From Sinorhizobium glycinis (GTDB taxonomy: Bacteria; Pseudomonadota; Alphaproteobacteria; Rhizobiales; Rhizobiaceae), in NCBI RefSeq assembly GCF_001651865.1, contig NZ_LPUX01000055.1:372001-436000 (forward strand): a stretch of 64,000 nucleotides of DNA, read 5' to 3'. A program made the position numbers and the translations under genes. The notes beneath the pieces are model-generated. The model was not told the origin of the DNA, did not search any database, and worked only from the letters and a program-made list of their open reading frames with translations. Below, piece after piece: positions 30,565-39,285 of the stretch (position 1 is the first letter of the stretch; the number at the start of each line of letters is the position of its first letter).

Positions 30565-31302
30565 ATGCGCATTCTGATCGTCAACCCCAACACCACCGCC
30601 TCGATGACCGAAAAGGCGGCAGCAGCCGCACGGGTGGTCGCCGGGCACGGCACGGAAATCATCGCGGCCACGTCGAAGAGCGGACCTGCCTCGATCGAGG
30701 GGCACTATGACGGGGCGATCGCCGTGCCCGGCCTGCTCGCGGAAATCCGCAAGGGAGAAGCAGCGGGAGCGGACGCCGCGATCATCGCCTGCTTCGACGA
30801 TACCGGGCTGGAAGCCGCCCGGGCCCTCGCCGCGATACCGGTGGTCGGCCTTTGCGAATCCGCTGCAATGACCGCGGCGCTCATAGCCCAGCGCTTCACC
30901 GTGGTCACGACGCTCGAGCGCTCCCGCGTGCTCCTCGAGAACCTCGTGCGCCGATACGGCATGGGGGATCGCGCCAAGGTCCGTGCCGCCGATATTCCGG
31001 TCCTCGAACTCGAAGACGCCGCCTCCGGCGCCCTCGGCAAACTCAGAGGGCAAATCGAACGGGCGCTCGACGAAGACGGCGCGGAGGCGATCGTTCTCGG
31101 CTGTGCCGGCATGGCCGACCTTGTGCAGTCGCTGCAACGTGAATATGGCGTGCCGGTCATCGACGGCGTTTCGGCGGCGGTCAAGCAGGCCGAAGCCCTG
31201 GTGGCCCAAGGGCTCGTGACCAGCAAGCGCGGCTCCTATGCCTCGCCGCTCCCGAAGGCCTATACCGGCGCGATGGAGGCCTTTGCGCCGGCTCGCCGCT
31301 GA
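30565..31302 (+). CDS. Hydantoin racemase / Asp-Glu racemase family protein
   Basis: A cytoplasmic cofactor-independent racemase of 245 residues. The start MRILIVNPNTTASMTEKAA is typical of hydantoin racemases. The two catalytic cysteines are visible in AIIACFDDTG near residue 75 and IVLGCAGMADL near residue 180. It is the last gene of the transporter operon, which suggests that the imported molecule, or a product of it, is a chiral 5-substituted hydantoin or related cyclic ureide. Allantoin racemase is a close alternative. Confidence 0.85.
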   Translation: MRILIVNPNTTASMTEKAAAAARVVAGHGTEIIAATSKSGPASIEGHYDGAIAVPGLLAEIRKGEAAGADAAIIACFDDTGLEAARALAAIPVVGLCESAAMTAALIAQRFTVVTTLERSRVLLENLVRRYGMGDRAKVRAADIPVLELEDAASGALGKLRGQIERALDEDGAEAIVLGCAGMADLVQSLQREYGVPVIDGVSAAVKQAEALVAQGLVTSKRGSYASPLPKAYTGAMEAFAPARR

Positions 31303-31411
31303 CCCGTGCCGACGAATCCCTCTGGTTGCAAAGCTCGTTGTTGACAACGCTCTGCGAAGGTTGAAAGAGTGTTGCTCACTCGAAGCGGGCAGCGTTGGGA
31401 GGACTTTGTCG

Positions 31412-34400
31412 ATGCGCGCGTTTCTCGCCCTTACCACCCTTCTCGTGACGCTTCTTTCCCTCGGCTCACCGGCCGCAGCGGCCGAAGCCGACCGCAAGGT
31501 CGAGGTGACCAACGATGCCGACTATTTCGGCTTCGACCTACGCACCGAGCAGAATGTCTCGCTCGACGGGTGCCAGGCAAGCTGTATCGCCGACCGCGCC
31601 TGCAAGGCCTTCACCTACAATCCAAAGGTGAAATGGTGCTTCCTCAAGTCCGACTTCAACCAGCTGAACACGTTCAAGGGCGCGATCGCCGGCAAGGTCG
31701 TCGAGACCGCCGCGGGCGAACCGGATCTCGGCGCCGCGCCGCGACTGACCTTCGTCTCGGACGACCTCCTGCAGCAGGCACGCGACGTCAAGGCCGGCCT
31801 CGCTTTGGCCGACGATCAGCTGGGCTTCGGCGTCAACGGATTGATCGAAACGGCACGTCGCGAGTTGACGGCTGGCAACTTCGTGGCGGCACTCACGGCA
31901 TTCCGCGGCGCGCTGGCGATCACCCCGGAGGACGGGAATTTGTGGCTGGAGACAGCCCGAACCGCCAACCGGTTCAGCGGCGGCACGGACCTCGCGAGCG
32001 AGGCTGCCCTGGCCGCGCTCAACGGCTATCAACTGACGCGGACCGCGCAGAGCCGCGCCGATGCGCTCGCCATCCTCGCCCAGGCGCTCGACAATTTGCA
32101 GAATTACCGAGCCGCGCTCCAGGCCTACAAGGCAAGCCTCGAGCTCGTGCAGGCCAAGACTGTCGAGACGGCCTATCTCGACCTCAAGGCGCGTCAGGGT
32201 TTCCGGGTCACGGGCCACACGATCGATGCGGATGGCGCAAGCCCGCGCGCCTGCGTCCAATTCTCCGAGCCGCTCCTGAAGAACGGTCCCGATTATGCCT
32301 CCTTCGTAACGCTCGACGGCGTCGCGCCGAAGGCGGTCGAGTCCAAGGGCAGCGAGATCTGCGTCGAGGGGCTCAAGCATGGCCAGCGCTACAAGCTGGT
32401 CTTCAGGCAGGGACTGCCCTCATCGGTCGACGAAGTCATCGAGACGCCGGTCAGCCTCGACATCTATGTCAAGGACCGCGCGCCGATGGTGCGCTTCACC
32501 GGCGACAGCTTCGTGCTGCCCTCGACGGCGCGGCGCGGCATTCCGATCGTCTCGGTCAACACGGAAGGCGCCAATCTCAAGCTCTATCGCATCGGCGACC
32601 GCAGCATCTCGTCGGTGCTGACAAGTTCGCAGTTCCTCACGCAGCTCGACGGCTATAGCGCCGAGCGCATCGAAGCCGAAAGCGGCGAACTCGTCTGGCA
32701 AGGCAGCATCGACATCCACACCGAGATCAACAAGGAAGTCGTTACGAGCTTCCCGGTCGATGAGGCGCTGCCGAAGCGCAAGCCCGGCGTCTATGTGCTG
32801 ACGGCCGCCTCCGCAACCGCGCTCAGCCAGGATTGGGATGCGCGCGCCACGCAATGGTTCGTCGTCTCCGATATCGGCATCTCGACCTATGCCGGGACCG
32901 ACGGGCTCAGCGTCTTTACCCGTTCGCTCGCCAGCGCCAAGCCGCTCGCGGATGTCGAACTGCAGCTGGTGGCGAAGAACAACGAAGTGCTCGGCACTGC
33001 GACGACCGATGCGGAGGGACGGGCGACCTTCGCGGCCGGCCTGATCCGCGGCACGGCAAGCATGACGCCAGCCGTCATCACGGCGCGAAAAGGTGACGAC
33101 GACTACGTGTTTCTCGACATGACGCGCGCCGGCTTCGATCTTTCCGACCGCGGCGTCACCGGCCGCGCCGCACCTGGCGCGATCGATATCTACGCCTGGA
33201 CCGAGCGCGGCATCTACCGCGCCGGCGAGACGGTGCATGCCGCAGCGCTTGCTCGCGACGTCAACGGTCAGGCGATCGAGAACCTGCCGCTCACCTTCGT
33301 CTTCCTGCGACCCGACGGCGTCGAGGATCGGCGCATCGTCAGCAATGGCGGCAAGCTCGGCGGCCATACGCTCGATCTGCCGATCCAAGAAAATGCCATG
33401 CGCGGCACCTGGACGATGCAGATCTTTACCGATCCCAAGGGATCGGCGATCGGCGAGAAGCAGTTCCTCGTCGACGATTTCGTGCCGGACCGCACCGAAT
33501 TCGACCTCACGAGCGCAGCGAAAGAGCTGGAAGTCGGCACCCCGGTGGACGTCGCCGTCGACGGTCGTTTCCTCTATGGCGCGCCGGCCGCAGGCCTGAC
33601 GCTGGAAGGCGATGTGGCGGTCAAGCCGACGCGCGAGAGCGAAGCCTTCAAGGGCTATTTCTTCGGCCTCGCCGATGAGGAGGCGAGCGAGGATACCCGC
33701 GTACCGCTCGAAGGCCTCGCGCCGCTCGATGAGGACGGGAAAGCCGTCTTTACCGTCGATCTCGCCGAGGTGCCCGCGACGACGCAATTGCTCAATGCCA
33801 CGGTTACGGTCCGCATGCGCGAGGGCGGAGGCCGGGCCGTCGAGCGCGCCTTGACGCTGCCCGTCAAGCCGGGCGGCGCGATGATCGGCATCAAGCCCGA
33901 GTTTTCCGGCGACCTCGCCGAGAACTCGGTCGGCAAGTTCCATGTGATCGCCGTCGACGCCAACGGTTCGAAGGTGGCGATGCCCGGCCTCTTCTGGAAG
34001 CTGATCAGCGTCGAACGGAACTATCAGTGGTATCGCGACGGCAGCGCCTGGAAATACGAGCCGGTCATTTCCACGAAACAGGTGGCAAACGGCACGGTCG
34101 GCGTGACCGAGGACGGCGCGCAGATCGCCGTGCCGGTCGGCTGGGGGCGCTATCGGCTGGAGATCGAAACGGCGGCGGCCGACGGCCCGACCTCCAGCGT
34201 CGAGTTCGACGCCGGCTGGTATGTCGAGGCCACCTCGACGGAAGCGCCGGACGGCCTCGAGATCGCCCTCGACAAGGAGAATTACGCTGTCGGCGAGACA
34301 GCGAAGCTCAAGGTTTCCCCCCGTTTCGCCGGCGAATTGCTGGTGACCGTCGGTACGGAGAACCTGATTACGACGAAGACGGCGACGATCGCCGAGACCG

Positions 34401-36865
34401 GCGGTGAAGTTGAACTCCCGGTCACCGCCGACTGGGGCGCCGGCGCCTACGTGACGGCGACGCTTTATCGGCCCGGCGACGCTCAGGAGACCCGCATGCC
34501 GATGCGGGCGATCGGCATCAAGTGGCTCGCGGTCGATCCCGCCGATCGCAAACTCGCAGTCGGTCTCGACGCACCCGAGAGGACGCAGCCGCGCCAGCCG
34601 CTCGATATCAGCCTCCAGGTGCGCGGCGCGGGCGCCAACGAGGACGCTTACGTCACGGTCGCCGCCGTCGATGTCGGCATCCTGAACCTGACGCGCTATG
34701 AAGCCCCCGATCCGGATGGCTGGTATTTCGGCCAGAGGCGGCTCGGCCTCGAAATCCGCGACCTCTACGGCCGCCTGATCGACGGTTCGCTCGGCGCGAC
34801 CGGGCGGCTGCGCACCGGCGGCGACGGCGGGCAGATGCCGCTGCAGGGTAGCCCGCCGACCGAAGAGCTGGTCGCCTACTTCTCCGGGCCGGTGAAGCTC
34901 GACGCCGAGGGCACCGCCAATGTCAGCTTCGACATCCCGCAGTTCAACGGCACGGCCCGCGTCATGGCGGTCGCCTGGACGAAGGCCGGCGTCGGCCATG
35001 CGGTAAAGGACGTCGTCATCCGCGACCCGATCGTCGTCACCGCCAGCCTGCCGAAGTTCCTGGCGCCCGGAGACCGGGCCGAACTGAGGCTCGACATCGC
35101 CAACACGGATGGACCGGCCGGCGACTATCAGCTGCAGGTGACCACCAATGGTCCGGCCACCGTCGAGCAGACGGGGCCATCCCAGACCGTGCAACTCGAA
35201 GCCGGCGGCAAATCCGCCGTGACACTGCCGCTGACCGGCCAGTATCCGGGCAACGGCCTCGTCACCGTCGCGCTCTCGAACGCTGCCGGACTGTCGCTGG
35301 AGCAGGCGCTCCACATCCCGGTCCGTCCGGCCGCATTGCCGATCACCCAGCGTCAGGTCGTCAATATCGCTGCCGGCAGCAGCCTGACCGTCGACGATCA
35401 ATTGCTCGCCGACAGCCTGCTGCAGGGCGCTTCGGTCAGCGTCAACGTCACCCGCTCGGCTGCCTTCGACATCCCGGCGCTGCTGATGTCCCTCGACCGC
35501 TATCCGTATGGCTGCGCCGAACAGACGACAAGCCGCGCCTTGCCGCTGCTCTATCTCAGCGAACTTGCCAAGCAGTCCGGCCTTGCCGAGGACGGAGAAG
35601 TGACGAAGCGCGTGCAGGACGCGATCTATCGCGTTCTTTCCTATCAGTCCTCGTCGGGGAGCTTCGGCCTCTGGAGCCCGGGTTCCGGCGATCTCTGGCT
35701 CGACGCCTATGTCACCGACTTCCTGACCCGCGCGCGCGAACAGAAATTCGACGTGCCGGAACAGGCGATGGTTCAGGCGCTCGAGAACCTGCAGAACGCG
35801 CTGAGCTACGAGGTGAACGTCAAGGATCAGGGCAACGAGATCGCCTATGCGCTCTACGTGCTCGCCCGCAACCGCAAGGCGGCGATCAGCGACCTTCGTT
35901 ATTACGCCGACACGCTGCTCGGAGATTTTCCGACGCCGCTTGCAAAGGCGCATATCGCCGCTGCACTCGCCCTTTACGGTGATGGCGGGCGCTCGCAGGA
36001 CATTTTCGCGGCCGCCGTCAACATGTCGACCGGCCTCGTCAATGTCAGCCTCGCCCGCTCCGACTACGGCTCATCGCTTCGCGACGATGCGGCGGTGCTG
36101 GCGCTCGCGGCCGAAAGCCGGCCGGTACCGCCGATCATCCCGGAACTGTCCAGGATCGTCGCGCGGGAATGGGAGCAGGCCCGCTACACCAGCACTCAGG
36201 AACAGGCCTGGATGCTGCTCGCCGCACGCGCCGTCCAGGGCGGTGACACGGACATGAACCTGGAGGTAAACGGCGCCCAGCGCACCGGCAGCTATGCCGC
36301 GCGGATCGCCGGCGATGCGCTGATCGAGCATCCGGTGGTCATCCGCAACAACGGCACTGACGCGGTTTCCGCCGTGGTCACCACCGTGGCGGCGCCCGCC
36401 GAGCCGCTCTCGGCCGGCGGCGACGGCTTCGCCATTGAGCGGACCTATTATACGCTCGATGGTGCCGAGGCGAATGTCAGTCAGGCGCGGCAGAACGAAC
36501 GCTATGTCGTCGTGCTGAAGGTGACCGAATCGAACGACTGGCCGTCTCGCGTGCTGATCAGCGACCTCCTGCCGGCGGGCTTCGAGATCGACAATCCGAG
36601 CCTTGTCGACAGTGCTCAGCTCTCGAATTTCGAGTGGATCGGCGAGGTTCAGGCCGCCCACACCGAGTTCCGCAGCGACCGCTTCGTTGCGGCTTTCGAC
36701 CGGTCCACGGGCGATAATCGCGAGATCACCCTTGCCTATGTGGTCCGTGCGGTGACGCCCGGGACGTATGACCATCCGGCCGCAAGCGTCGAGGACATGT
36801 ACCGGCCGCAGTTCTCGGCCCGCACCGCGACGGGCCGTATGGAGGTGCTGGCGGCCCAGCAGTAG
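31412..36865 (+). CDS. Bacterial alpha-2-macroglobulin with N-terminal PAN domain
   Basis: A periplasmic protease-trapping protein of 1817 residues, longer than E. coli YfhM (about 1650). A Sec signal (MRAFLALTTLLVTLLSLG...AAA) has no lipobox, unlike the lipoprotein form. Residues 30-95 form a PAN/apple-like domain with four cysteines (DGCQASCIADRACKAF...WCF), followed by a helical repeat-like region. Macroglobulin domains follow. The thioester motif CAEQ is at about residue 1368 in YPYGCAEQTTSRALP, so the covalent trap is intact. The ATG at 31412 has GGAGG nine bases upstream. It is directly followed by pbpC, the usual partner. Confidence 0.92.
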   Translation: MRAFLALTTLLVTLLSLGSPAAAAEADRKVEVTNDADYFGFDLRTEQNVSLDGCQASCIADRACKAFTYNPKVKWCFLKSDFNQLNTFKGAIAGKVVETAAGEPDLGAAPRLTFVSDDLLQQARDVKAGLALADDQLGFGVNGLIETARRELTAGNFVAALTAFRGALAITPEDGNLWLETARTANRFSGGTDLASEAALAALNGYQLTRTAQSRADALAILAQALDNLQNYRAALQAYKASLELVQAKTVETAYLDLKARQGFRVTGHTIDADGASPRACVQFSEPLLKNGPDYASFVTLDGVAPKAVESKGSEICVEGLKHGQRYKLVFRQGLPSSVDEVIETPVSLDIYVKDRAPMVRFTGDSFVLPSTARRGIPIVSVNTEGANLKLYRIGDRSISSVLTSSQFLTQLDGYSAERIEAESGELVWQGSIDIHTEINKEVVTSFPVDEALPKRKPGVYVLTAASATALSQDWDARATQWFVVSDIGISTYAGTDGLSVFTRSLASAKPLADVELQLVAKNNEVLGTATTDAEGRATFAAGLIRGTASMTPAVITARKGDDDYVFLDMTRAGFDLSDRGVTGRAAPGAIDIYAWTERGIYRAGETVHAAALARDVNGQAIENLPLTFVFLRPDGVEDRRIVSNGGKLGGHTLDLPIQENAMRGTWTMQIFTDPKGSAIGEKQFLVDDFVPDRTEFDLTSAAKELEVGTPVDVAVDGRFLYGAPAAGLTLEGDVAVKPTRESEAFKGYFFGLADEEASEDTRVPLEGLAPLDEDGKAVFTVDLAEVPATTQLLNATVTVRMREGGGRAVERALTLPVKPGGAMIGIKPEFSGDLAENSVGKFHVIAVDANGSKVAMPGLFWKLISVERNYQWYRDGSAWKYEPVISTKQVANGTVGVTEDGAQIAVPVGWGRYRLEIETAAADGPTSSVEFDAGWYVEATSTEAPDGLEIALDKENYAVGETAKLKVSPRFAGELLVTVGTENLITTKTATIAETGGEVELPVTADWGAGAYVTATLYRPGDAQETRMPMRAIGIKWLAVDPADRKLAVGLDAPERTQPRQPLDISLQVRGAGANEDAYVTVAAVDVGILNLTRYEAPDPDGWYFGQRRLGLEIRDLYGRLIDGSLGATGRLRTGGDGGQMPLQGSPPTEELVAYFSGPVKLDAEGTANVSFDIPQFNGTARVMAVAWTKAGVGHAVKDVVIRDPIVVTASLPKFLAPGDRAELRLDIANTDGPAGDYQLQVTTNGPATVEQTGPSQTVQLEAGGKSAVTLPLTGQYPGNGLVTVALSNAAGLSLEQALHIPVRPAALPITQRQVVNIAAGSSLTVDDQLLADSLLQGASVSVNVTRSAAFDIPALLMSLDRYPYGCAEQTTSRALPLLYLSELAKQSGLAEDGEVTKRVQDAIYRVLSYQSSSGSFGLWSPGSGDLWLDAYVTDFLTRAREQKFDVPEQAMVQALENLQNALSYEVNVKDQGNEIAYALYVLARNRKAAISDLRYYADTLLGDFPTPLAKAHIAAALALYGDGGRSQDIFAAAVNMSTGLVNVSLARSDYGSSLRDDAAVLALAAESRPVPPIIPELSRIVAREWEQARYTSTQEQAWMLLAARAVQGGDTDMNLEVNGAQRTGSYAARIAGDALIEHPVVIRNNGTDAVSAVVTTVAAPAEPLSAGGDGFAIERTYYTLDGAEANVSQARQNERYVVVLKVTESNDWPSRVLISDLLPAGFEIDNPSLVDSAQLSNFEWIGEVQAAHTEFRSDRFVAAFDRSTGDNREITLAYVVRAVTPGTYDHPAASVEDMYRPQFSARTATGRMEVLAAQQ

Positions 36866-36870
36866 GCGCG

Positions 36871-39285
36871 ATGTCGATCCGCAGGAAGCTTTTCGTCGGT
36901 TTGCCAGGGCAGATGCTTGAGCGGGTAAGATTGAGCCGCAGAGGCATGGCGCCTGTTGTACCCCCCTCTGCCCTGCCGGGCATCTCCCCCACAAGGGGGG
37001 AGATCAGGGAGGTGGGCGCTCGCGCCACATCAGAAGAGGAGATTGAGGCGCACCCACCGCTTGTGGTCCGGGCCATCAAATCCCACGCGTTTTGGAGACT
37101 GCGGCCCAGCCGCTTGCCGATCTCCCCCCTTGTGGGGGAGATGCCCGGCAGGGCAGAGGGGGGTAATTCCCGGACGGCCAATTCCCATCGTTCCAGACAT
37201 CCACGCCGCCTTCGCGCATTTCTGATCGCCTTGCCGGTCGGCCTCGTCATGAGCGCGCTTGCGGCCCTTGGCCTCGAATGGGCCGACCGAGCCTTTCCGC
37301 CGCCGCTCGAGCGCGCCCAGGCCTTTTCACGCGAGGTTCTCGACAAGGACGGACACCTGCTGCGCGCCTTCGCCACTCCGGACGGACTGTGGCGGCTGAA
37401 GACGACGGTCGGCGATGTCGATCCGCGCTTCGTCGACATGCTGGTCGCCTATGAGGACCAGCGGTTCCGCGAGCATCGCGGCGTCGATCCGCTGGCGCTC
37501 GGCCGTGCGGCGCTGCAGTTCATCACCAATGGCCGCATTGTTTCCGGCGCCTCGACGCTTTCGATGCAGGTGGCGCGACTGATCGAGCCGCGCGAGCGGC
37601 GGTCACTGACGGCGAAGCTGTTGCAACTCGCGCGCGCCGTCCAGATCGAACGGCGCCTTAGCAAGGAGCAGATCCTCGACCTCTATCTGACCCACGCGCC
37701 TTACGGCGGCAACCTCGAAGGGGTTCGCGCCGCGAGCCTCGCCTGGTTCGGCAAGGAGCCGCGCCGCCTTTCGGTCGGCGAGGCGGCCATGCTCGTCGCC
37801 CTGCCGCAATTGCCCGAGAAACGCCGCCCGGACCGCAACCTGGCGGCCGCCGATGCAGCCCGAAAACGGGTGCTTGCCCGCGCGGCGGTCGCCAAGGTCA
37901 TCGGCGAAGGCGAGGCGGAGCGGGCGGCGATGACGGCAATACCGGCCCGCCGCCTGCAGCTCCCGGCCCATGCCGCGCATCTGGCGGAAGCCGCCCTGCG
38001 CAAGGACCCGCAGGCGCTCCGCCACGAGACGACACTGCGTCGCGAAATCCAGCGCGGGCTCGAAGCCGTCGCCCGCGAAGGCGCTGCGAAACTTGGCCCG
38101 AAGGTCTCCGTCGCGATGCTCATGGCCGATGTCAGGACCGGCGAGATCGTCGGAGAGGTCGGTTCGGCCGATTATTTCGACGCCAGCCGCTCCGGCTGGA
38201 TCGACATGACGCGGATCACCCGCTCGCCGGGATCGACGCTGAAACCCTTCATCTACGGGCTCGCCTTGGAGGAAGGCCTCGTCAGCCAGGAGACGATCAT
38301 CGAGGATCGGCCGGCGGATTTCTTCGGCTATCGACCGCGCAACTTCGACATGAGCTACCAGGGTGACGTCAGCATTCGCCAGGCGCTGCAGCTTTCGCTC
38401 AACGTGCCGGCGATCCGGCTCCTCGATGCGGTCGGGCCGGCGCGCTTGATGGTGCGCTTCCGCCGTGCCGAGGTTCGGCCGAAGCTGCCGGCGCACGAGG
38501 CGCCGGGGCTTGCGATCGGCCTTGGCGGCGTCGGCATCACGCTGCGCGACCTCGTCCAGCTCTATGCGGGCCTTGCCAACCGCGGCTTGCCGGTGCGGCT
38601 CGGCGACGGCATCGAGGGCAAGCCGGGGTTGATCGACGGCGAGTCGCTGCTTTCGCCGGTCGCCAGCTGGCAGGTTGCCGATATTCTTTCAGGCGTGCTG
38701 CCGCCGACCGGAAGCCGGCAGCGCGGCATCGCCTACAAGACGGGCACCAGCTATGGCTATCGCGACGCCTGGTCGGTCGGCTTCGACGGCCGCTACGTGC
38801 TCGGCGTCTGGGTCGGGCGGCCGGACCACGGTGCTGTACCCGGGCTGACCGGCTATGGCGCGGCCGCGCCGATCCTCTTCGAAGGATTCGCAAGGGCCGG
38901 CGTCGCCATCACCCCGCTGCCGGACGCGCCGGCCGGCGCCATCCGCTTGGCGCAGGCCGATCTGCCGATCGGTCAAAGACGCTTCTCCGTCACGGCGAAC
39001 GGCCTGCCATCCACGTCGATCCGTGAAGCGGCGCCGCAGATCGTCTTTCCACCGGAGGGTGCGCGCGTCGAGCTTGGCGCCACCGCCGGTCAGGCACTGA
39101 TGCCCTTGACTCTGAAATTGCAGGGCGGCCGGGCACCGTTTCGCTGGCTGGCGAACGGCCGGCCGCTGCCGGACGTGACGCGCCGCCGCGTCAGCCAGTG
39201 GCTGCCTGACGGCGGCGGATATTCGACCCTGACGGTCATCGACGCGCTGGGCCGTGCTTCGACAGTGCGCGTTTTCGTCGAATGA
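36871..39285 (+). CDS. pbpC: Penicillin-binding protein 1C with in-frame repeat insertion
   Basis: A bifunctional class A peptidoglycan synthase of 804 residues, anchored by one membrane helix at about residues 114-137. The glycosyltransferase domain has EDQRFREHRGVDPLALGRA and GASTLSMQVARL. The transpeptidase domain has the SxxK motif STLK at residues 455-458 and KTGTS near 625. A C-terminal BiPBP-type domain follows. The start at 36871, six bases after the macroglobulin stop, is the only ATG that keeps the membrane anchor, although its ribosome site is weak. Residues about 30-98 are encoded by a 207-bp inverted-repeat element. No ATG or GTG occurs between this element and the helix. Confidence 0.87.
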   Translation: MSIRRKLFVGLPGQMLERVRLSRRGMAPVVPPSALPGISPTRGEIREVGARATSEEEIEAHPPLVVRAIKSHAFWRLRPSRLPISPLVGEMPGRAEGGNSRTANSHRSRHPRRLRAFLIALPVGLVMSALAALGLEWADRAFPPPLERAQAFSREVLDKDGHLLRAFATPDGLWRLKTTVGDVDPRFVDMLVAYEDQRFREHRGVDPLALGRAALQFITNGRIVSGASTLSMQVARLIEPRERRSLTAKLLQLARAVQIERRLSKEQILDLYLTHAPYGGNLEGVRAASLAWFGKEPRRLSVGEAAMLVALPQLPEKRRPDRNLAAADAARKRVLARAAVAKVIGEGEAERAAMTAIPARRLQLPAHAAHLAEAALRKDPQALRHETTLRREIQRGLEAVAREGAAKLGPKVSVAMLMADVRTGEIVGEVGSADYFDASRSGWIDMTRITRSPGSTLKPFIYGLALEEGLVSQETIIEDRPADFFGYRPRNFDMSYQGDVSIRQALQLSLNVPAIRLLDAVGPARLMVRFRRAEVRPKLPAHEAPGLAIGLGGVGITLRDLVQLYAGLANRGLPVRLGDGIEGKPGLIDGESLLSPVASWQVADILSGVLPPTGSRQRGIAYKTGTSYGYRDAWSVGFDGRYVLGVWVGRPDHGAVPGLTGYGAAAPILFEGFARAGVAITPLPDAPAGAIRLAQADLPIGQRRFSVTANGLPSTSIREAAPQIVFPPEGARVELGATAGQALMPLTLKLQGGRAPFRWLANGRPLPDVTRRRVSQWLPDGGGYSTLTVIDALGRASTVRVFVE
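36959..37165. repeat. 207-bp MITE-like element with 47-bp perfect terminal inverted repeats
   Basis: The arms at 36959-37005 and 37119-37165 are exact reverse complements (TACCCCCCTCTGCCCTGCCG at the start), and each arm itself folds through ATCTCCCCC/GGGGGGAGAT. The outermost TA on both sides could be a target-site duplication of the kind made by IS630/Tc1-type elements. The length is 69 codons and the pbpC frame stays open through it. No transposase is encoded. Confidence 0.8.

What the first reader, a model, noticed from the sequence alone, without database searches (positions are those of the whole stretch)
36959..37165. MITE-like inverted-repeat element domesticated in frame inside pbpC
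A 207-bp element with 47-bp perfect inverted repeats lies between the only plausible start of pbpC and its membrane helix. It is exactly 69 codons, has no stop in the pbpC frame and is flanked by TA on both sides. No ATG or GTG occurs between the element and the helix, so the protein apparently carries 69 repeat-encoded residues in its cytoplasmic tail. This resembles the Rickettsia palindromic elements that insert into genes. The strong RNA structure next to the start could also limit PbpC synthesis relative to the macroglobulin.
Basis: partly seen in the sequence, partly recalled or inferred. Interest (0 to 1): 0.75.

Follow-up and report, generated by a model that had tools for sequence, protein, structure and literature searches.

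The report
Palindromic repeat in frame inside PbpC
A short, apparently mobile DNA palindrome sits in frame inside a cell-wall enzyme gene of a Sinorhizobium bacterium, and the same kind of element has entered several other genes across the genus, where it is kept open, lost, swapped and sometimes turned round without breaking the reading frame.

Summary
In detail: 36959-37165 has 47-bp perfect inverted arms, 207 bp, open in the pbpC frame. It is one of at least 53 full copies in this Sinorhizobium genome. Among 33 species the pbpC site has both arms in 15, remnants in 4, none in 14. The ATG after the macroglobulin stop is in frame in 33 of 33, over 23 tail lengths, so the tail is very probably translated. 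The family also sits in frame at cobN (two sites), mltB and a thiol-oxidoreductase-like gene: over the five sites all 72 full copies are open, 71 joined in frame to the upstream part.

At pbpC the spacers evolve near-neutrally (omega 0.67-1.08; enzyme 0.09-0.11), while arm silent sites usually change less than the enzyme's. Three spacer lineages stand at one pbpC site. At cobN and mltB some species carry the spacer reverse-complemented, still in frame.

Verdict: it works like a Rickettsia palindromic element, a tolerated in-frame passenger rewritten in place. 'Domesticated' is not supported, TA flanks are not general, an effect of the hairpin on synthesis is untested. My searches listed no report of this in rhizobia.

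The parts
36959..37165 (+). Palindromic element in pbpC, in the pbpC frame (PPSALPGISPTRGEI ... PISPLVGEMPGRAEGG)
36959..37005 (+). Left arm, 47 nt
37006..37118 (+). Spacer, 113 nt (115 nt between the 44-nt arm cores used), lineage A
37119..37165 (+). Right arm, 47 nt
36871..39285 (+). pbpC, penicillin-binding protein 1C, 804 aa
   Evidence: TIGR02073
36871..36873 (+). Start codon, 5 nt after the macroglobulin stop; the ATG 5-11 nt after that stop is in frame in 33 of 33 genus genomes
36874..36958 (+). 5' linker of the N-tail; no significant second copy in the genome
37166..37218 (+). 3' linker, arginine-rich, before the membrane helix
   Evidence: sequence
37219..37275 (+). Likely membrane helix (FLIALPVGLVMSALAALGL)
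   Evidence: read by eye from the sequence; no predictor was run
37141..37143 (+). In-frame ATG inside the right arm, directly behind GGGGGAG: possible secondary start
31238..36865 (+). Upstream alpha-2-macroglobulin gene

Best explanation
The element is one copy of a non-autonomous palindromic repeat family that spread in Sinorhizobium. It entered the N-terminal cytoplasmic tail of PbpC within the genus. It persists because its arms hold no stop trinucleotide on either strand and because total length and spacer left the frame open. Ribosomes start at the conserved ATG 36871 and read through it, adding about 69 residues of near-neutral, probably disordered tail; selection mainly removes stops and frameshifts. 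The arms are held similar by DNA-level homogenisation with the many other genomic arms, which also lets the spacer be lost, exchanged and, at other genes, inverted in place. Shown: copy number, in-frame presence, patchy states, near-neutral spacers, conserved arms, orientation differences between species. Inferred: translation itself, disorder, the conversion/recombination mechanism, how new copies arise.
For: 53 full copies in the 57 fetched regions plus the window. At the pbpC site 15 of 33 species have both arms, 4 a remnant and 14 none. The ATG 5-11 nt after the macroglobulin stop is in frame, with no stop in the tail, in 33 of 33; tails have 23 distinct lengths, all multiples of 3. The five spacer lengths among full copies are all 1 mod 3. 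Of 80 named relatives, 3 have a recognisable arm and 1 more a trace; these four are genomes already among the 33. The same family is in frame at cobN S1 in 13 of 30 loci, S2 14 of 30, mltB 10 of 30, thiol-oxidoreductase-like 20 of 30, all open through the element; 47 other full copies of this genome are open in 164 of 282 frames. Omega: core 0.10, 0.09, 0.11; spacer 0.67, 1.08, 1.02 in sets A, B, C. Arm dS 0.06 and 0.03 against core 0.41 in set A. Three spacer lineages at one pbpC site. Spacer orientation splits without conflict at cobN S1 (8 to 5), S2 (12 to 2) and mltB (9 to 1).
Against: No proteomic or ribosome data. Species are related, so 72 open copies are not 72 events. In the thiol-oxidoreductase-like gene of G008 the signal-peptide part is out of frame with the element, a broken gene or a sequencing error. 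In set B the left arm is hardly more conserved than silent sites of the core (dS 0.27 against 0.43), and in sets A and C the right arm has more replacement than silent change; each arm gives only 15 codons a pair. Arms are perfectly paired only in the window genome; the other full pbpC copies pair at 37-43 of 44 positions. An in-frame ATG in the right arm could give a shorter product. No empty site at base resolution was found, so transposition and target duplication are not shown. Set A spacers may be partly misaligned, which inflates dN.
Confidence: 0.8

Rival explanations
1. Domesticated element: the 69 residues, or the mRNA hairpin 88 nt after the start, have a selected role in placing PbpC or in holding down its synthesis relative to the macroglobulin.
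For: Arm silent sites change less than those of the core in most comparisons; strong RNA fold; present at the site in several clades.
Against: Near-identical arms occur all over the genome, so this is not special to pbpC. Spacer omega is 0.67, 1.08 and 1.02. 14 of 33 species lack the element and 4 keep only remnants. Most arm changes are on one side; paired changes are seen at the type I/II positions and at one position in G007.
Confidence: 0.1
2. The element is not translated: PbpC starts at ATG 37141 in the right arm or at a weak codon near the helix, and the element is 5' leader.
For: ATG 37141 follows GGGGGAG directly; TTG 37231 and ATG 37249 exist.
Against: The upstream ATG would have no reason to be in frame in 33 of 33 species through 23 lengths, nor the spacers to be stop-free in 15 of 15. 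Sinorhizobium orthologues without the element start at that ATG. The purine run abuts the ATG with no spacing. In cobN the same element lies in mid-protein and must be translated if CobN is made.
Confidence: 0.08
3. Hot-spot model (concerns history, and can be true together with the best explanation): each lineage gained its own copy at a few favoured sites, in either orientation, instead of one old insertion with later exchange and inversion.
For: Three spacer lineages at the pbpC site; the full state needs at least 6 changes on the pbpC tree; CobN S1 also occupied in another genus.
Against: At mltB all 10 full copies share one homologous spacer, 9 in one direction and 1 reversed, and the close pair G031 and G032 differ in direction with matching flanks and arm positions. 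Type I/II mosaics in arms at one site suggest exchange in place.
Confidence: 0.3

Closest known systems
Rickettsia palindromic elements (RPE; Ogata 2000, 2002, not held; seen through passages of PMC10969869 and PMC2229807)
   Same: Palindromic, stop-poor, multicopy, found in and between genes, fused in frame into conserved genes, apparently tolerated.
   Different: Free-living GC-rich Rhizobiaceae; longer perfect arms (47 bp against 12 bp in the PMC2229807 table); the peptide matched no NCBIfam model; spacer exchange and inversion at orthologous sites, which the passages I saw do not mention.
Wolbachia protein-coding palindromic repeats (title only, in the reference list of PMC2229807)
   Same: Coding palindromes in another alphaproteobacterium.
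   Different: Endosymbiont; sequences not compared.
In-frame bacterial MITEs: ERIC, Correia/NEMIS 107 bp, YPAL/RU-2 (PMC2229807 passages)
   Same: Small inverted-repeat elements whose reading frames fuse to host frames.
   Different: Listed with 7-24 bp terminal repeats and with target duplication, which is not shown here.
Rhizobial RIME, Sm and A/B/C repeats (named in passages of PMC2573895 and PMC2780559; Osteras 1995 not held)
   Same: Multicopy palindromic repeats of Sinorhizobium; possibly the same DNA family.
   Different: Described in those passages as intergenic; letters could not be compared.
Coding palindromes in Nematomorpha mitochondria (PMC6649704, abstract and outline)
   Same: Long perfect inverted repeats in translated genes.
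   Different: There both arms encode conserved native protein; here the arms are an addition.

Membership tests
Rickettsia-type coding palindromes (as a class) | Multicopy palindromic repeat of about 100-200 bp | tested here: met
   53 full copies, 114-243 bp, mostly 160-210 bp
Rickettsia-type coding palindromes (as a class) | Inserted in frame in conserved genes that also exist without it | tested here: met
   pbpC, cobN S1 and S2, mltB, thiol-oxidoreductase-like gene
Rickettsia-type coding palindromes (as a class) | Also present outside genes | tested here: inconclusive
   47 other full copies; most looked intergenic by frame and GC3, by eye, but they were not annotated one by one
Rickettsia palindromic element sequence families | Sequence homology to RPE | tested here: inconclusive
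   Element peptide: 0 NCBIfam hits at E up to 1; not verified that the library holds RPE models
Rickettsia-type coding palindromes (as a class) | Host protein shown to be made and active with the insert | not testable with these tools
   needs proteomics or enzyme assay
MITE | Terminal inverted repeats, no transposase gene, high copy number | tested here: met
   207 bp leave no room for a transposase
MITE | Target-site duplication (TA) | tested here: inconclusive
   TA on both sides in only 8 of 53 copies; TA is its own reverse complement, so it cannot be told from the repeat end, and no empty site was resolved
MITE | Shares ends with an autonomous IS | tested here: inconclusive
   No long element bounded by these arms seen by eye among the 100 of 109 arms listed
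REP/RAYT | Y1 (RAYT-type) transposase in the genome | tested here: not met
   PF01797: 0 matches in own genome; control rings in 5 of 14 genomes
RIME / Sm repeats of rhizobia | Published consensus sequence | not testable with these tools
   Osteras 1995 not held; six arm or peptide strings found in 0 papers

The most novel reading that the evidence does not exclude
The arms act as recombination sites, so that each in-gene copy is a rewritable coding cassette: the spacer can be inverted or exchanged in place, changing roughly 30-60 residues of an enzyme without breaking its frame, possibly as reversible variation within a population.
Probability: 0.25. Interest if true: 0.85.

Novelty: new variant of a known kind. 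Interest (0 to 1): 0.62.

Why it matters
Coding palindromes are best known from Rickettsia and Wolbachia. Here the same way of life is seen in a free-living, culturable genus with 6-7 Mb genomes, at orthologous sites in many species, in genes for cell wall (pbpC, mltB), cobalamin (cobN) and protein targeting (ftsY). That makes open questions testable: how a palindrome gains entry to genes, whether the added residues matter, how long arms survive, and whether spacer inversion happens in living populations. It also warns that parts of such proteins in databases may be repeat-derived.

Tried and rejected
Rfam at loose threshold gave only plant miRNA hits far below their cut-offs, read as a palindrome artefact. 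NCBIfam gave no hit for the element peptide. The idea that the mobile unit was larger than the palindrome (a TTGCC motif stands on both sides of element plus linkers) was dropped: the 5' linker has no significant second copy in the genome. A RAYT-driven REP origin was dropped. A TA-duplicating origin lost support. Length mod 3 of all genomic copies was no use as a test. I asked whether pbpC spacer lineages B and C are inversions of A: 0 of 105 pbpC pairs passed as inverted; between lineages there were only weak signals, 5 of 42 A-B pairs direct and 2 of 14 B-C pairs reversed at z > 5. Flipped spacers stay open in 45 of 72 cases, about the background rate, so there is no sign that spacers are built for inversion. 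Literature: the listings showed no coding palindrome in rhizobia (open-licence PMC papers only; most listed papers were not opened; the founding RPE and RIME papers are not held). Structure prediction was not run.

Papers: passages seen of PMC2573895, PMC2780559, PMC10969869, PMC3733652, PMC2873474, PMC2229807; abstract and outline of PMC6649704; others by listing or title. The names FtsY, MltB, thiol oxidoreductase, biotin-carboxylase-like, SUMF1-like, SMC and RuvA were given by eye from translated sequence and come from no family search; CobN is borne out, PbpC. Rows dropped: the 108-bp copy L149 and the coding copies from the background count; the duplicate region L172; 8 genomes not read at every site. 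One search printed minus-strand loci unturned; one search turned them.

Full report
What is there. The window lies in a Sinorhizobium genome: its 33-genome genus group includes S. fredii USDA 205 (G006), S. medicae (G012), S. saheli (G018) and S. psoraleae (G017). The inverted repeat at 36959-37165 is as described: 47-nt arms, 100% complementary, 113 nt between them. It lies inside pbpC (36871-39285), whose ATG stands 5 nt after the stop of the alpha-2-macroglobulin gene. The RNA would fold strongly (z = -8.35, 0 of 100 shuffles).

A repeat family. The arm pattern occurs 54 times forward and 55 times reverse in the genome (up to 3 mismatches; reversed control 0 and 0). The call listed 100 of these 109; from them and I fetched 57 regions, and with the window found 53 distinct full copies. 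Two arm types exist, with a GCCCGGCAGGGC or a GGCCGGCAGGCC core. The 39-nt arm consensus holds no TAA, TAG or TGA on either strand. Ends are mostly (T/C)ACCCCC; TA on both sides is found in 8 of 53. No Y1 transposase family match is in the genome.

pbpC across the genus. All 33 genomes have pbpC. In all 33 the ATG 5-11 nt after the macroglobulin stop is in frame with the enzyme and the tail has no stop; the tails have 23 different lengths. Both arms are present in 15, remnants in 4 (G006, G020, G024, G029), none in 14: six with a very short tail and eight with linker only (by eye for the remnants; the stricter automatic one search gives 15 full, 2 one-armed, 16 none). Of the 80 named relatives, arms were recognised in 3 (L039, L041, L104) and a trace in L043, all four being genomes of the 33. 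The three outgroup Ensifer and most of the others begin a few residues before the helix, by eye; one, L057 (Phyllobacterium), has a longer open stretch of another kind. On the pbpC tree the full state needs at least 6 changes and all four states 11, against 18.2 for shuffled labels: clustered but patchy.

How it evolves (Nei-Gojobori, Jukes-Cantor). Set A, five species: core omega 0.10 and dS 0.41; arm dS 0.06 (left) and 0.03 (right); spacer omega 0.67. Set B, five species: core omega 0.09 and dS 0.43; arm dS 0.27 and 0.07; spacer omega 1.08. Set C, one pair: core omega 0.11, spacer 1.02, no silent arm change. So the inserted protein sequence is hardly constrained, while arm silent sites change 6-12 times less than core silent sites in A and 1.6-6 times less in B. 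Arms give only 15 codons a pair, and the right arm shows more replacement than silent change in A and C. Arm changes are mostly one-sided; changes on both sides are seen at the type I/II positions (G025, in part G011) and at one position in G007. G011 and G030 mix type I and type II arms. This points to exchange with other copies rather than selection for pairing. Three spacer lineages, with little or no similarity to each other, stand at the same pbpC site, and all five spacer lengths are 1 mod 3.

Other genes. In this genome two more copies lie in mid-cobN in the same reading frame, one in mltB before the signal peptide, and one in a thiol-oxidoreductase-like gene behind the signal peptide in another frame; ftsY carries degraded, element-derived pieces. 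Each gene was found in 33 of 33 genomes and 30 loci of each were read. Full copies: cobN S1 13 of 30, S2 14 of 30, mltB 10 of 30, thiol-oxidoreductase-like 20 of 30. With pbpC that is 72 full copies, all open through the element; both cobN sites are stop-free in 30 of 30 whatever their state. One of the 72, the thiol-oxidoreductase-like gene of G008, has its signal-peptide part out of frame upstream of the element. For comparison, 47 other full copies of this genome are open in 164 of 282 frames. The species are related, so 72 is not a count of events. In-frame scars are seen, such as cobN S2 of G003 and mltB of G029. A related CobN chain of solved structure has 1263 aa; CobN frames without inserts are 1265-1271 aa in G028, G029, G001 and G030. 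In a sample of 61 family genomes, 11 (own and one genus-mate included) match the element peptide; translated examples lie in CobN S1 of G061, FtsY of G078 and a biotin-carboxylase-like protein of G046. Genomes with more arms have more full coding sites (25 genomes read at all sites, Spearman 0.78; 0.73 after removing the sites' own arms; not corrected for relatedness). S. medicae and its nearest relatives (G012, G013, G014, G003, G022) have 3-18 arms and no full copy at the sites read, which may be why work on S. meliloti did not notice this (inference; which handle is S. meliloti is not known).

Spacer inversion. At mltB the 84-nt spacer of G031 matches that of its near neighbour G032 only as reverse complement (64 of 84 without gaps, 0 of 200 shuffles as good) and that of G027 better still (69 of 84), with arms and flanks in place. 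A systematic test found reversed pairs at cobN S1 (11 of 78), S2 (7 of 91) and mltB (9 of 45), none at the thiol-oxidoreductase-like gene (0 of 190) or pbpC (0 of 105) (z > 5). With z > 6 each of the three sites splits into two orientations without one conflict: 8 and 5, 12 and 2, 9 and 1. The signal is strong at S2 (85 and 87 of 115 without gaps for the best pairs) and mltB, and weaker at S1 (z 5-7, with gaps, for the four pairs tested with 200 shuffles). G007, G010 and G023 are assembled in 3-4 contigs, so a short-read assembly flip is unlikely there; G031 is a 140-contig draft, so its flip alone could be one. pbpC lineage A shares a spacer family with cobN in one relative direction: direct in 19 of 48 pairs with S1-plus (1 reversed) and 30 of 72 with S2-plus, reversed in 6 of 30 with S1-minus and 7 of 12 with S2-minus. 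When spacers are flipped in a script, 7 of 13, 12 of 14, 9 of 10, 8 of 20 and 9 of 15 stay open at S1, S2, mltB, thiol-oxidoreductase-like and pbpC, 45 of 72 together and about background. Inversion by recombination between the arms is the simplest reading, but separate insertions in opposite direction are not excluded.

Mechanism and verdict. I read this as a non-autonomous palindromic repeat that survives in genes when it lands in frame in tolerant places (N-tail before a helix, behind a signal peptide, variable stretches of CobN), is translated as near-neutral residues, and is rewritten in place through its arms. It works like a Rickettsia palindromic element; membership by sequence is not shown.

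Noticed in passing
L206-L235 (ftsY upstream regions), own genome G000:C60:228480-229130: The acidic N-terminal domain of FtsY in the genus looks, by eye, largely built from two to three degraded element copies (PPSVPSGHLPHKGG ... PISPLVGEMPGRAEGG); 29 of the 30 loci read could be followed from the MAIG start.
   Followed up: partly
L246 (G046:C34:1312-1455): Element-like segment in frame between the carboxylase part and the biotin-carrier end of a biotin-carboxylase-like protein in another Rhizobiaceae genus.
   Followed up: no
L243 (G061:C1004:153978-154130): CobN site S1 is occupied by an element-like segment in another genus of the family, suggesting a favoured or very old site.
   Followed up: partly
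G000 against 32 genus genomes: The window's genome has the most arms of the 33 (111); G029 has 2 and G012, G013, G014, G003 and G022 have 3-18.
   Followed up: partly
L126 (C53:531076), L162 (C62:323396), L150 (C64:784874): Copies lie just upstream of, or at the N-terminus of, genes resembling smc, ruvA and a SUMF1-like gene; whether they are translated is unknown.
   Followed up: no
L057 upstream of its match: The pbpC of a Phyllobacterium has a longer open stretch before the helix with another repeat-like peptide (LLPSPLWGGRLRSSREG).
   Followed up: no
window 31238-36865: The bacterial alpha-2-macroglobulin carries an N-terminal PAN domain.
   Followed up: no
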